Below are positions 2,614-5,953 of a stretch of DNA of 6,606 nt, in pieces. The notes under the pieces are model-generated. The model was not told where the DNA came from, ran no database searches, and saw only the letters and a program-made list of their open reading frames with translations. Every line of letters starts with the position of its first letter. The first letter of the stretch is position 1. This DNA comes from an uncultured Caryophanales bacterium (GTDB lineage: Bacteria; Bacillota_I; Bacilli_A; RF39; UBA660), in NCBI GenBank assembly GCA_946414975.1, contig CAMKQS010000073.1:1-6606 (forward strand), read 5' to 3'. Position numbers and translations under genes: made by a program.

Positions 2614-3660
2614 TTAAAATACTCCTATATTCTCACTAAAATTTTTAAATATATCAATTGTATCCGTAATTATTTTTTTTATAAATTCATCTTCTAATGT
2701 TTTTATTTCATTTCTTAAGTCTAATATAAATCCTCTAATTATTTCATATTCACTACTAATTATTTCATCATCATTATGTAATTCTTTATAATTTTTTGCA
2801 AAATGACTCATATTATGAATTATTGAATTATGTTTTATTTTTTCTAAACTAATTTCTCTTATTCTATTATTTGATAATTTATTATTCATAATTATATCTA
2901 AATAATTATCTACTGAATTATTCAAATCTTTTAACATATTATATTCTAATAAAATACTATTGTTTTCTAAATTTATATTCATATCTTTTTGATATGATAT
3001 TAACATATAACTCTTAGATATTTCATAAGTATGATATAAATTATCTAAATCAAGTGATATCATTTCAAATAAGTATGTCATATAACATCTTATTGCGTCT
3101 TTATTCGTAATAAAATTCTTTAATTCAGATTCATATTTATCTTTTTTATTATATGATAAATAATCTATTTCTATTTTATCTATATTATTTATTTTGTACT
3201 TTAATGTATTAACAAGCATATCCTTATCAAACTTATTTATTGTTAGTGAATTTATCTCATTACTTATTCTATCAATTTCCAGTGTTAATTTTCCTATATT
3301 ATCAGCATTTCTAATTAAGTATTTGTTTATTTTTTCTTCCGTTTCTATTTTCTTTATATCTATCTTTTCTGTAAGTGATTTTACTATATTAATTTTCTTT
3401 TTTAATAGCGCGAAATTATGGTTTTCTAAAATATTTTTTTTATTTATATAATAATCTAATTCTTTTTTTAATATATCACGTGTTCTTATATCTTTTTCTT
3501 TGCTCTTTTCAAATGTTAATATATCTATATATAACTTTCTAATATCTATTAATTTTAGTATTATTTCTTGATCTAAATATTTATTAAAAAAAGATTTATT
3601 TAAACTATTAATTTTATCTCCACTATCGTTTTTAAAGATATTTTCTAATATAGTAAACAC
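2614..3660 (-). CDS. Unrecognised coiled-coil-rich protein in the pgi gene cluster
   Basis: I do not recognise a family. From the start chosen here it is a 348-residue protein rich in Lys, Asn, Ile, Asp and Glu, with no signal peptide and no membrane segment, so it is probably cytosolic. Residues about 50-185 look like long charged helices with heptad-like spacing of Ile/Leu (coiled coil), and about 260-345 is a second helical stretch. No catalytic motif is visible. The start is set by the ribosome site: AGAGGTGG (3666-3673) lies 5 bases upstream of the GTG at 3658-3660. The longer reading from GTG 3667-3669 would put the start codon inside that site. It ends 2 bp before pgi and carries pgi's ribosome site in its last codons, so it is expressed together with pgi and the phosphohexomutase. 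A scaffold or envelope-linked role is possible but not supported by any motif. Confidence 0.8.
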   Translation of the reverse strand: MFTILENIFKNDSGDKINSLNKSFFNKYLDQEIILKLIDIRKLYIDILTFEKSKEKDIRTRDILKKELDYYINKKNILENHNFALLKKKINIVKSLTEKIDIKKIETEEKINKYLIRNADNIGKLTLEIDRISNEINSLTINKFDKDMLVNTLKYKINNIDKIEIDYLSYNKKDKYESELKNFITNKDAIRCYMTYLFEMISLDLDNLYHTYEISKSYMLISYQKDMNINLENNSILLEYNMLKDLNNSVDNYLDIIMNNKLSNNRIREISLEKIKHNSIIHNMSHFAKNYKELHNDDEIISSEYEIIRGFILDLRNEIKTLEDEFIKKIITDTIDIFKNFSENIGVF

Positions 3661-3679
3661 GTATTCCACCTCTATAATA

Positions 3680-3733: not shown

Positions 3734-4894
3734 TTAATTTATTTTTTTCTTTCTTTTTACAATGATTTTTTCTAAATTTTCATCATCTATATTAGAATGA
3801 GTGGTACAGTATGTTTTTACATCATTTAAAATATCGCTAATATCATATTTTGATATATCATATTTCATTTTCTCCATTTTATTTATAATAGCATTCTTAC
3901 CAGAATGAATACCTATTATTATATTATCTGTATATATACCATAATCTATAGGATTTATAATTTCATATGTTTCTTTATTATTAATAACTCCCGCTTGATG
4001 TATTCCTGCTTCATGTTTAAACGCATTAGCACCTACTATTGGTTTATTATTTTGTACATATGAATGTGTAATTTCTTGAACATATTTACTTACTTCCATT
4101 ATCATTTTTTTATTAATCGTAGTCTTTGATTTGAAGTAATCATATCTAGTATCAAGAGCAGCTACTATCTCTTCTAGTGCAGCATTACCTGCACGTTCTC
4201 CTATACCATTAATTGTGCATTCTACTTGTTCAGCACCTACCTTAATAGCTGATAAAGAATTAATAGTAGCTAATCCTAGATCATTATGACAGTGAATGGA
4301 TAAACAAACATCATTAATGTACTTACTATTTTTCTTAATATATTTTAAAAATTTCATAAATTCATATGGAACTACATACCCTACTGTATCTGGTATATTT
4401 ATTGTAGTAGCACCTGAACTAATAGCAATATCTATTATTTCTACTGCAAAATCTTTATCTGTTCTTGTTGCATCTTCTAGTGAAAACTCTATATCATCAC
4501 ATTTGCTTTTAGCATAACTAACATATTTTTTTACTATTTCTTTTATCTGTTCTTTATTCTTTTTTAATTTATACTTCATATGAATATCTGATGTAGCAAT
4601 AAATGTATGTATTCTTTTATTTTTAGCACCAGATAAAGCTTCTATTGCTAAATCTATATCATTCTTATTACAACGTGCAAGTGATGTAACTATACTATTA
4701 TTTACTACTTTAGATATCTTTTTTATTGCCTCAAAATCATTTTTACTACTAGCAGCAAATCCTGCTTCTATTATATCTACACCCATCATATCAAGTTTTT
4801 TGGCAAGGGTCACTTTTTCATTAATGCTCATAGAGCACCCTGGTGATTGTTCACCATCTCTAAGTGTTGTATCAAATATTTTTATCTTTCTCAT
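3734..4894 (-). CDS. leuA: 2-isopropylmalate synthase, short form without the leucine-binding regulatory domain
   Basis: It condenses acetyl-CoA with 2-ketoisovalerate, the committed step of leucine synthesis. The DRE-TIM barrel motifs run from residue 8, DTTLRDGEQSPG (Arg12, Asp13), through HTFIATS (His96), FSLEDATR (Ser138), NIPDT (166-170), HCHNDLG (metal ligands His201 and His203) and NGIGERAGNAALEE (Asn237), to NAFKHEAGIHQAGV (290-303). The protein ends at residue 386, where classical LeuA (about 510 residues) continues into the C-terminal allosteric dimer domain. The 3' end reads as a normal stop with no remnant downstream. The start is the ATG at 4894, with GGAGG (4905-4901) 6 bases upstream and MRKIKIFDTTLRDGEQ typical of LeuA. 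The ATG at 4900 abuts the GGAGG and is unlikely. Homocitrate or citramalate synthase are alternatives, but the leucine-codon leader upstream favours leuA. No leuBCD is present in the window. Confidence 0.9.
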   Translation of the reverse strand: MRKIKIFDTTLRDGEQSPGCSMSINEKVTLAKKLDMMGVDIIEAGFAASSKNDFEAIKKISKVVNNSIVTSLARCNKNDIDLAIEALSGAKNKRIHTFIATSDIHMKYKLKKNKEQIKEIVKKYVSYAKSKCDDIEFSLEDATRTDKDFAVEIIDIAISSGATTINIPDTVGYVVPYEFMKFLKYIKKNSKYINDVCLSIHCHNDLGLATINSLSAIKVGAEQVECTINGIGERAGNAALEEIVAALDTRYDYFKSKTTINKKMIMEVSKYVQEITHSYVQNNKPIVGANAFKHEAGIHQAGVINNKETYEIINPIDYGIYTDNIIIGIHSGKNAIINKMEKMKYDISKYDISDILNDVKTYCTTHSNIDDENLEKIIVKRKKKIN

Positions 4895-4908
4895 AATCAT
4901 CCTCCATC

Positions 4909-4950
4909 AAAAAAAGCCCATTACTATAAAAATTTGTATAGTAATAGGCT
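4909..4950 (-). terminator. Attenuator terminator (segments 3:4) in the leuA leader
   Basis: On the minus strand, segment 3 (AGCCTATTACTATA, 4950-4937) pairs with segment 4 (TATAGTAATGGGCT, 4928-4915) in a 14-bp stem with one G-U pair and an 8-base loop. An unbroken run of seven U (4915-4909) follows. This is a strong intrinsic terminator lying between the promoter and the leuA ribosome site (GGAGG, 4905-4901). It would stop transcription before leuA unless segment 3 is sequestered by segment 2. Confidence 0.93.
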
Positions 4951-4990
4951 AATAACCATAAATATCCATGCAAAAACTACCTATTACTAT
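4938..4990 (-). promoter_or_regulatory. Antiterminator (segments 2:3) of the leuA leader
   Basis: Segment 2 (ATAGTAATAGG, 4990-4980) is perfectly complementary to bases 4948-4938 of segment 3 over 11 Watson-Crick pairs, plus a possible U-G pair (4979 with 4949). Segment 3 cannot be in this helix and in the terminator stem at once, so 2:3 pairing prevents termination. It is favoured when a ribosome stalled on the leucine codons hides segment 1. Confidence 0.88.
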
Positions 4991-5045
4991 TCAGTCGTAA
5001 TAATAGGCATAAGAGATTATTTAAATTATGTGAATAATTACTCAT
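4977..5045 (-). CDS. Leucine-rich leader peptide of leuA (leuL-type attenuation peptide)
   Basis: This is a 22-codon ORF starting ATG (5045-5043) and ending TAG (4979-4977). It has seven leucines, six of them within eight residues (Leu-Leu-Cys-Leu-Leu-Leu-Arg-Leu, residues 11-18), encoded by CTC TTA TGC CTA TTA TTA CGA CTG. CTC and CTG look uncommon in the AT-rich neighbours, where TTA and CTT prevail, so the run includes probably slow leucine codons. The region AAAAGAGATGAT (5061-5050) matches the extended Shine-Dalgarno AAAGGAGGTGAT at 10 of 12 positions and sits well for the ATG at 5045. An in-frame ATG at 5054-5052 would add three residues but overlaps this site. The product is expected to act in cis: stalling on leucine codons when charged tRNA-Leu is scarce changes folding of the leader RNA and allows leuA transcription. 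It is not homologous by sequence to E. coli LeuL; the match is one of design. Confidence 0.9.
   Translation of the reverse strand: MSNYSHNLNNLLCLLLRLNSNR
4980..5007 (-). promoter_or_regulatory. Pause/anti-antiterminator hairpin (segments 1:2) of the leuA leader
   Basis: Segment 1 (CCTATTATTA, 5007-4998) pairs with segment 2 (TAGTAATAGG, 4989-4980) over 10 bp with one G-U pair and an 8-base loop. Segment 1 is made of the leader peptide's own leucine codons (CTA TTA TTA), so ribosome position decides whether it can form. When 1:2 forms, or when the ribosome reaches the TAG at 4979-4977 and covers segment 2, the 3:4 terminator is free to fold. Confidence 0.88.
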
Positions 5046-5070
5046 ATCAATCATCTCTTTTCTTAAATAG

Positions 5071-5099
5071 AATATATCACTAATCAATATTTATGTCAA
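5071..5099 (-). promoter_or_regulatory. Strong promoter for the leuA leader transcript
   Basis: On the minus strand there is a perfect -35 TTGACA (5099-5094), a 17-bp spacer ending in the extended -10 TGn, and a -10 TATATT (5076-5071). Initiation is expected near A5064, about 170 nt before the leuA ATG. A terminated leader RNA would be roughly 155 nt. The near-consensus promoter suits a system where control is exerted after initiation. Confidence 0.9.
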
Positions 5100-5152: not shown

Positions 5153-5953
5153 ATGGGAATAATTAAAGATATTAAAAATAAAAAAATATTAAATGAGATT
5201 AATAAACTTAATGGTAATAAACTTCAAATTTTTGGGTGCGTAGAGGGAATATATAGAGCTTCATTAAATGTTAACTATGAAAAAATAAAATTACCAAATG
5301 GCATTAAAAGCACTATTCATCTTTATAATAATGACAATACTTTGCAAATTTTTTTTACAAATGAAAATAATGAAAAGTTTGCTGTTGTTGAATGTTTAAA
5401 AACAGAAAAAATGTTGGAAGAACATAAAAAACAAGAAGAAATTAGAAAAAAAGAAGCTGAACTAGCAGAAGAAAAGAGATTGCTAGAACAAAAAGAAGTT
5501 GAAAGAAAAAGAAAAGCGATGAAAGAACTTAATGATAGAATTGCTCAAAGAAGATTTGAAAGTTATATTGATTTTTTAATTACTAATGGTGCGAATAAAG
5601 AAATAATTGAATTAGAACCTGTTAGAAAATTAATTATGGGGATTATAAAAAATGGAGATCCAAGAGTAATAATGGATGGAAGATCTCCAATTGTATATAA
5701 AACACCAAATAGTGATGGTACTTTTGAAATAGCCGGAAGATTAAATGGACCTATTGCTAGTGATTTTTATAACATTAGTTATTGTAATGATGACGATCCT
5801 TCTCACTTTATTAAAATAACTAATGAAAGAAAAAAAAGACTTCATTATTCTATGGATGACCCAATTGGTGATGCATATGATGTAACTATACTTAATACGA
5901 CTTATATCGATAAAAATGGAGAAATCGTCAATGAAGATACTAAAAGATATTAA
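5153..5953 (+). CDS. Unrecognised protein with a central charged coiled coil
   Basis: I do not recognise a family. It has 266 residues with three visible parts: a mixed N-terminal region (1-80), a strongly charged Lys/Glu/Arg helix with coiled-coil character (about 82-135), and a C-terminal domain of probable mixed alpha/beta fold (about 136-266) with DPRVIMDGRSPIVYKTP and ITNERKKRLHYSMDDP. There is no signal peptide and no membrane segment, so it is probably cytosolic. The start is the ATG at 5153, with GGAGG (5140-5144) 8 bases upstream. An in-frame ATG at 5093 has no ribosome site and lies upstream of the promoter. It is a single gene, divergent from leuA and convergent with the kinase gene, ending in the shared terminator with its stop inside the palindrome. 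Its job is unknown. Confidence 0.85.
   Translation: MGIIKDIKNKKILNEINKLNGNKLQIFGCVEGIYRASLNVNYEKIKLPNGIKSTIHLYNNDNTLQIFFTNENNEKFAVVECLKTEKMLEEHKKQEEIRKKEAELAEEKRLLEQKEVERKRKAMKELNDRIAQRRFESYIDFLITNGANKEIIELEPVRKLIMGIIKNGDPRVIMDGRSPIVYKTPNSDGTFEIAGRLNGPIASDFYNISYCNDDDPSHFIKITNERKKRLHYSMDDPIGDAYDVTILNTTYIDKNGEIVNEDTKRY

What the first reader, a model, noticed from the sequence alone, without database searches (positions are those of the whole stretch)
4909..5099. Complete leucine-codon ribosome-stalling attenuator upstream of leuA in a low-GC Gram-positive-like genome
All parts of a classical attenuator are visible in under 200 bp: a near-consensus promoter, a 22-codon leader ORF with six Leu in eight codons, segment 1 built from those leucine codons, segment 2 ending directly before the leader stop, segment 3 pairing with either 2 (11 bp, perfect) or 4 (14 bp), and a U7 tract just ahead of the leuA ribosome site. 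Four alternating copies of one 10-base sequence and its complement (CCTATTATTA, TAGTAATAGG, CCTATTACTA, TAGTAATGGG) make the exclusive pairings exact. This design is well known from enterobacterial leu operons. In Bacillota leucine genes are usually under T-box control, so this may be an undescribed or independently evolved example.
Basis: partly seen in the sequence, partly recalled or inferred. Interest (0 to 1): 0.92.

Follow-up and report, generated by a model that had tools for sequence, protein, structure and literature searches.

The report
Leucine attenuator on orphan leuA gene
A short RNA switch in which a ribosome that stalls on leucine codons should turn on a leucine-pathway gene is present and conserved in uncultured, AT-rich Bacilli; the mechanism is textbook, but the relatives that carry it seem to lack the other leucine-pathway enzyme families that were searched for, so what the gene is for is an open puzzle.

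Summary
In detail: on the minus strand before leuA lie an 11-of-12 promoter, a 22-codon leader ORF (MSNYSHNLNNLLCLLLRLNSNR), four alternating segments giving 1:2, 2:3 and 3:4 helices, and U7. A Leu-dense short ORF alone is common (55 of 1123); conservation makes the case. Of 13 relatives with a strong leuA match, 12 have a Leu-rich leader and terminator (the 13th gene is broken, not assessed). Coordinated changes keep all three helices. A covariance model hit 4 of 386 genomes, all before leuA, one outside its training set. Best explanation: classical leucine-dependent ribosome-mediated attenuation (0.93); nothing was measured. Such BCAA attenuators are published for S. aureus and L. monocytogenes, so the novelty argument weakens: new member of a known kind. 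The surprise is the target: LeuA lacks its C-terminal regulatory domain, and tested relatives lack the LeuC and branched-chain aminotransferase families (0 of 12 each) and LeuB and IlvD (0 of 8 each); controls rang in 13-14 of 14. The window's own genome is not held. In passing: a covarying RNA without Rfam match precedes the Leu leader in three relatives and other genes elsewhere.

The parts
5094..5099 (-). -35 hexamer TTGACA
   Evidence: 11 of 12 together with the -10, spacer 17
5071..5076 (-). -10 hexamer TATATT, TG before it
5055..5060 (-). weak leader ribosome site AAAGAG, 9 nt before the leader ATG
   Evidence: read from the sequence; stronger sites in relatives, e.g. GGGAGG in G111
4977..5045 (-). 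leader peptide ORF MSNYSHNLNNLLCLLLRLNSNR, 22 codons, six Leu in eight codons
   Evidence: Leu-rich leaders in relatives
4998..5007 (-). segment 1 core CCTATTATTA, made of the Leu codons
4980..4989 (-). segment 2 core TAGTAATAGG, ends just before the leader stop; pairs with 1 or 3
4939..4948 (-). segment 3 core CCTATTACTA; pairs with 2 (antiterminator) or 4 (terminator)
4917..4926 (-). segment 4 core TAGTAATGGG
4915..4950 (-). 3:4 intrinsic terminator hairpin, 14 bp, -17.4 kcal/mol
4909..4915 (-). U7 tract of the terminator
4901..4905 (-). leuA ribosome site GGAGG
   Evidence: read from the sequence
3734..4894 (-). leuA, 2-isopropylmalate synthase without the C-terminal LeuA_dimer domain (ORF listing start 4900; likely start 4894)
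   Evidence: NF002086 553.6 bits over its cut-off 532; TIGR00973 519.2, under its cut-off 598.7; PF00682 and PF22617 only

Best explanation
A classical ribosome-mediated transcription attenuator that senses charged leucine tRNA. Transcription starts at the 5099-5071 promoter. With leucine plentiful the leader ribosome runs through the Leu codons to the UAG stop and covers segment 2, so segment 3 pairs with 4 and transcription ends in U7. With leucine short the ribosome stalls in the Leu run (segment 1), segment 2 is free and pairs with 3 as soon as 3 is made, the terminator does not form in time and leuA is transcribed. The anatomy and its conservation are shown here; promoter use, translation of the leader, termination and the leucine response are inferred. 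In the relatives the controlled gene is a pathway-orphan leuA; its product lacks the C-terminal regulatory domain and is under purifying selection.
For: Parts in order. Fold z -4.29. RNAalifold on six leaders, given no structure, returned the 1:2 and 3:4 hairpins, 6 of 23 pairs with a change on both sides. In G027 one core position changed in all four segments (C,G,C,G to A,U,A,U), keeping 1:2, 2:3 and 3:4; L002 has a matching triple change in 1, 2 and 3. Ribosome-footprint folding: in the window segment 3 is 0.70-0.85 paired upstream, before segment 4 is made, with the A site at Leu codons 11-16, falling to 0.51 at codon 18 and 0.49 at the stop; a clear drop in 7 of 9 sequences. The 2:3 duplex is matched by at most 31 of 500 shuffles in 9 of 12 sequences. 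Leaders are Leu-rich in two sequence types, LLxLLLRL (window, G001, G002, G027, G388, G400, G516) and LLLAL (G032, G108, G111, G172, G197, G372). Model R1 hit 4 of 386 genomes, each before leuA, G516 being new. Rare codons CTC+CTG are 17 of 80 leader Leu codons against 2 of 161 in six window genes, Fisher 1.9e-7, leaders not independent.
Against: No expression data. In the window the terminator wins at equilibrium even with a stalled ribosome (0.94-0.99), so the switch must be kinetic; in some relatives (L002, G027, G108, G172, G197) stalling at some codons does lower it. Without any ribosome the computed upstream pairing of segment 3 before segment 4 is made is already 0.80 in the window, so super-attenuation is not clearly predicted. 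G111 shows no stall effect and G197 a weak one. 2:3 is unremarkable against shuffles in G400 (43 of 500), G111 (114) and G032 (121). R1 does not reach the LLLAL type well: G172 E 0.005, G111 0.5, G372 0.94, and G032, G108, G197 none at E<=1. The leader ribosome site in the window is weak. Leu-dense short ORFs are common here (55 of 1123).
Confidence: 0.93

Rival explanations
1. Another leucine-sensing leader, such as a T-box or riboswitch, with the ORF incidental.
For: T-boxes abound in these genomes, 7-11 matches in each of 8; leucine genes of B. subtilis use one (PMC5794164, PMC6123439, passages).
Against: No Rfam match in this leader at E<=1; none of the T-box matches listed lies within 2 kb upstream of leuA in those 8 genomes; Leu codons and segment pairings are conserved together.
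Confidence: 0.02
2. An ordinary intrinsic terminator or insulator before leuA with a coincidental Leu-rich ORF.
For: Leu-dense short ORFs are common (55 of 1123); the terminator alone is strong.
Against: Leu-rich leader in 12 of 13 relatives (the 13th, G294, has a broken leuA and was not assessed); segments 1 and 2 follow the changes in segment 3; R1 hits only before leuA, 4 of 4.
Confidence: 0.03
3. The leader peptide arrests its own ribosome (nascent-chain arrest on a conserved LLxLLLRL or LLLAL motif) in response to a small molecule, rather than sensing charged leucine tRNA.
For: Peptide motifs are conserved within each type, and a CGA codon that occurs once in 2038 codons of the window genes is kept in all 7 LLxLLLRL leaders (read from the leaders listed).
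Against: The two peptide types share little but the leucine run; the RNA constraint on segment 1 explains much of the shared sequence; rare Leu codons are enriched, as expected for tRNA sensing.
Confidence: 0.04
4. About the target, not the switch: attenuator and leuA are relics of a lost leucine pathway and leuA is on its way out. This is compatible with the attenuator being real.
For: LeuC, LeuB, IlvD and branched-chain aminotransferase families absent in tested relatives; G294 carries a broken leuA; leuA is rare (6 strong of 193 family genomes; 9 of 385 in the order). dN/dS of leuA (0.12) is higher than that of the neighbouring isomerase gene (0.07).
Against: dN/dS about 0.12 (window against L001) and 0.13 (against L002) still means purifying selection; most active-site motifs kept; one well-supported clade of short LeuA with conserved leaders.
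Confidence: 0.12

Closest known systems
leu operon attenuators of Salmonella and E. coli (leuL)
   Same: Leu-codon leader peptide, alternative helices, terminator before leuA (segment design recalled; attenuation summarised in PMC6123439, passages read)
   Different: No detectable sequence kinship (no Rfam match); there leuA heads leuABCD, whereas tested relatives of the window lack the LeuC (0 of 12) and LeuB (0 of 8) families
S. aureus ilv-leu attenuator (PMC5794164)
   Same: Bacillota; leader peptide with Leu codons; terminator; leucine response seen with reporters
   Different: 26-aa peptide with Ile and Leu codons before ilvD of a full ilv-leu operon; its proposed antiterminator frees a motif that pairs with the U-tract, the terminator stem staying intact (section 9)
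L. monocytogenes Rli60 (PMC5864092)
   Same: Bacillota; four-segment ribosome-mediated attenuator tested by mutation
   Different: 13-aa leader rich in BCAA codons, before ilvD of an ilv-leu operon, also under CodY
Leu leaders of Fusobacteriaceae leuA (L003, L004)
   Same: Very Leu-rich leader ORFs before leuA
   Different: Long LeuA (505 and 504 aa); two terminator-like stems (by eye); no R1 match

Membership tests
Ribosome-mediated transcription attenuator (leu leader type) | Short leader ORF rich in codons of the pathway's amino acid | tested here: met
   ORF and Leu run, conserved; its translation was not testable
Ribosome-mediated transcription attenuator (leu leader type) | Mutually exclusive antiterminator and terminator helices kept by coordinated changes | tested here: met
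   weak or absent in G111 and G197 and, for 2:3, in G400, G111 and G032
Ribosome-mediated transcription attenuator (leu leader type) | Intrinsic terminator before the structural gene | tested here: met
   in the window; in relatives
Ribosome-mediated transcription attenuator (leu leader type) | Expression responds to leucine through leader translation | not testable with these tools
   needs reporter or RNA data
Rfam leader families incl. T-box RF00230 | Match to the covariance model | tested here: not met
   no match in the leader at E<=1, no listed T-box within 2 kb upstream of leuA in 8 genomes
2-isopropylmalate synthase (LeuA) | Catalytic domain and active-site motifs | tested here: met
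   one conserved Asp (HQDG) is Ala in the window and Ala or His in the other short LeuAs that reach it, but G516 keeps Asp
2-isopropylmalate synthase (LeuA) | C-terminal leucine-binding LeuA_dimer domain | tested here: not met
   no such Pfam match; 388 aa against about 500 aa in most other LeuAs; all 120 listed of 7113 homologues carry only PF00682 and PF22617
Leucine biosynthesis pathway | LeuC, LeuB, IlvD, branched-chain aminotransferase in the genome | tested here: not met
   relatives only: PF00330 0 of 12, PF00180 0 of 8 (36), PF00920 0 of 8 (37), PF01063 0 of 12 (48). LeuD, IlvC and other aminotransferase families were not tested; the window's own genome is not held

The most novel reading that the evidence does not exclude
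A leucine attenuator has been kept for a lone, feedback-free 2-isopropylmalate synthase in leucine auxotrophs: when leucine runs short the cell makes 2-isopropylmalate (or a related acid) that it cannot itself turn into leucine, for example to export it to neighbours whose own feedback-inhibited LeuA step is thereby bypassed, or for a use not yet known. In some relatives the switch is stacked behind a second, undescribed structured RNA.
Probability: 0.35. Interest if true: 0.78.

Novelty: new member of a known kind. Interest (0 to 1): 0.52.

Why it matters
The switch extends experimentally grounded BCAA attenuation to an uncultured Bacilli lineage and gives a compact case with coordinated four-segment changes. 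More important, a well-kept starvation switch on an enzyme whose pathway seems to be missing asks what a leucine auxotroph gains from making 2-isopropylmalate. That can be tested directly by enzyme assay and metabolite measurement, and it bears on metabolite exchange in microbial communities.

Tried and rejected
Rejected: T-box or other Rfam leader. Rejected: chance Leu-rich ORF, although such ORFs alone are common. Rejected: loss of the active site (most motifs kept); the HQDG Asp is Ala or His in the short LeuAs that reach it, but His also occurs in many long ones and G516 keeps Asp, so it says little. Alignment A2 places L002's segments 3 and 4 wrongly and A4 misplaces G027; pairings were therefore also checked in register without alignment, where the two mismatches shown for L002 3:4 are loop letters that I took into the core, and G400 has 1-2 mismatches at the end of each helix. 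A first tree used a wrong frame for G516 and is void; it was redone (the dN/dS figures do not use G516). The default filters of the RNA search missed the training sequence G027 in L083 although the same stretch in L123 scores 75.3 bits and G027 was found. Paper searches for a lone LeuA or 2-isopropylmalate exchange and for the second RNA gave no listed title on the point; that is no proof of absence. The lineage name RF39-like is a guess from recall; records L001 and L002 say 'uncultured Bacillales bacterium'.

Full report
What is there. The minus strand upstream of leuA carries, within 191 bases, an 11-of-12 promoter, a 22-codon leader, four alternating ten-base segments and a 14-bp terminator with U7. 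The region folds better than shuffles (z -4.29, 1 of 200 as good). The leuA start is best placed at 4894. Downstream on the same strand lie a 351-aa ORF without family match, a glucose-6-phosphate isomerase-like and a phosphoglucomutase-like gene, in the same order in L001.

Relatives. A scan with LeuA gave the best 80 of 293 loci: L001 (91%) and L002 (76%), titled 'uncultured Bacillales bacterium', then 54% or less. Whole-genome searches gave strong leuA matches in 6 of 193 genomes drawn from the family of G001 (13 of 193 at E<=0.001, the other 7 weak, E 1e-13 to 5e-4), 3 of 7 of the genus and 9 of 385 drawn from the order at E<=1e-60. In all, 13 relatives have a strong leuA: G001, G002, G027, G032, G108, G111, G172, G197, G294, G372, G388, G400, and G516, which came through the RNA model. 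Twelve have a Leu-rich leader and terminator before leuA. In G294 the match starts at residue 70 and holds a stop; its upstream region was not assessed. The gene that follows leuA differs in most loci inspected; window and L001 agree, and G388 and G294 share theirs. Leader and leuA thus travel together.

Selection on the pairings. RNAalifold on six leaders (window and five relatives) returned the two expected hairpins without being given a structure, with 6 of 23 pairs changed on both sides in at least one sequence. In G027 one position differs in all four segments so that every helix is kept; in L002 three segments change together. A covariance model of these six (R1) scanned over 386 family genomes, with stricter filters, hit 4, all before leuA; three were training sequences and one, G516, was new. 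The LLLAL-type leaders are weak matches to R1 (G172 E 0.005, G111 0.5, G372 0.94) or none at E<=1 (G032, G108, G197), so common descent of the two types is plausible but not shown.

Mechanism test in silico. Folding only the RNA downstream of a stalled ribosome, segment 3 pairs upstream while the A site lies in the Leu run, and this fades by the stop codon in 7 of 9 sequences; G111 shows no effect, G197 a weak one. The footprint edge (12 nt after the first A-site base) is an assumption, and the measure counts any upstream partner, not segment 2 alone. In the window the complete RNA prefers the terminator at equilibrium, so the decision must be kinetic. Against shuffles the 2:3 duplex is strong in 9 of 12.

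The controlled gene. LeuA here passes one NCBIfam IPMS cut-off (NF002086, 553.6 bits over 532) and not another (TIGR00973, 519.2 under 598.7). Most active-site motifs agree with solved IPMS in the alignment. It is 388 aa long and has no C-terminal domain match. All 120 listed closest homologues, of 7113 at E<=1e-100, are 379-411 aa and carry only PF00682 and PF22617. Twelve short LeuAs, first 395 residues, form one side of a branch against 21 other LeuAs chosen, support 100/100 (cut G172 and broken G294 left out). dN/dS is about 0.12 and 0.13, against 0.07 for the neighbouring isomerase gene. Yet none of 12 relatives has a member of the aconitase/LeuC family or of the branched-chain aminotransferase family, and none of the 8 tested has LeuB/ICDH or IlvD; the same searches rang in 14, 13, 14 and 14 of 14 control genomes. 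All 12 carry leuA, broken in G294 and split over contig ends in G172. Completeness of these genomes was not reported, but four families missing from all tested genomes are hard to blame on gaps. LeuD, IlvC and other aminotransferases were not tested, nor was G516 for any of these. For the window itself the orphan state is inferred from its sister G001.

Leucine sensing elsewhere in the genomes. Each of 8 relatives has 7-11 T-box matches at E<=0.001. I looked at 20 of these loci; in three (G197, G027, G002) the T-box precedes a 110-116-aa hydrophobic ORF and then leuS. So these cells use T-boxes and still have ribosome attenuation for leuA.

What is known. S. aureus (PMC5794164) and L. monocytogenes Rli60 (PMC5864092) have experimentally supported ribosome-mediated BCAA attenuators, and PMC6123439 cites predictions in L. 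lactis and Streptococcus. The present case is therefore a new member of a known kind. Its leader has no Rfam match.

Verdict. Observation confirmed; interpretation right on mechanism, too strong on novelty; the pathway-orphan target is the part worth following.

Noticed in passing
L118:1210-1308 (+), L117:2819-2911 (-), L124:1362-1450 (+); model R2 in 47 of 386 genomes: A second structured RNA with its own terminator lies between promoter and Leu leader of leuA in G388, G400 and G516. A three-way-junction model found 59 matches in 47 of 386 genomes of the family of G400. On 39 aligned matches 98.7% of cells pair (shuffles 75.1) and 147 cells are changed on both sides (shuffles 49.5); further pair types are not raised (214 of 500 shuffles as high); the alignment was fitted to the model. 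No Rfam match in L117, L118 or 20 further loci. Of 6 downstream proteins tested, 2 are GNAT acetyltransferases, 1 an ABC ATPase, 1 a methyltransferase. The 5' GUGA can pair with UCAC in the terminator arm (by eye): riboswitch-like. No R2 match in the window.
   Followed up: partly
L087 and L119 (G172, G372), between terminator and leuA: A second Leu-rich small ORF with its own ribosome site (MCYIKFIDRIIYLLLLLSPLGGEI; MQYARYKNIIISLLLFLSPSGESK) holding a CCCC/GGGG stem follows the attenuator: possibly a second control step.
   Followed up: no
L003, L004 upstream of leuA: Two Fusobacteriaceae leuA genes have leaders with runs of 10 and 12 Leu codons and two terminator-like stems seen by eye.
   Followed up: no
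window 4997-4993 (-) and relatives: The loop of the 1:2 hairpin keeps CGACU, including a CGA codon, in all 7 LLxLLLRL leaders; CGA occurs once in 2038 codons of the window genes.
   Followed up: partly
window 2614-3669 (-) and 5153-5953 (+): Two ORFs without Pfam or NCBIfam match; the first is kept in L001 between leuA and the isomerase gene.
   Followed up: no
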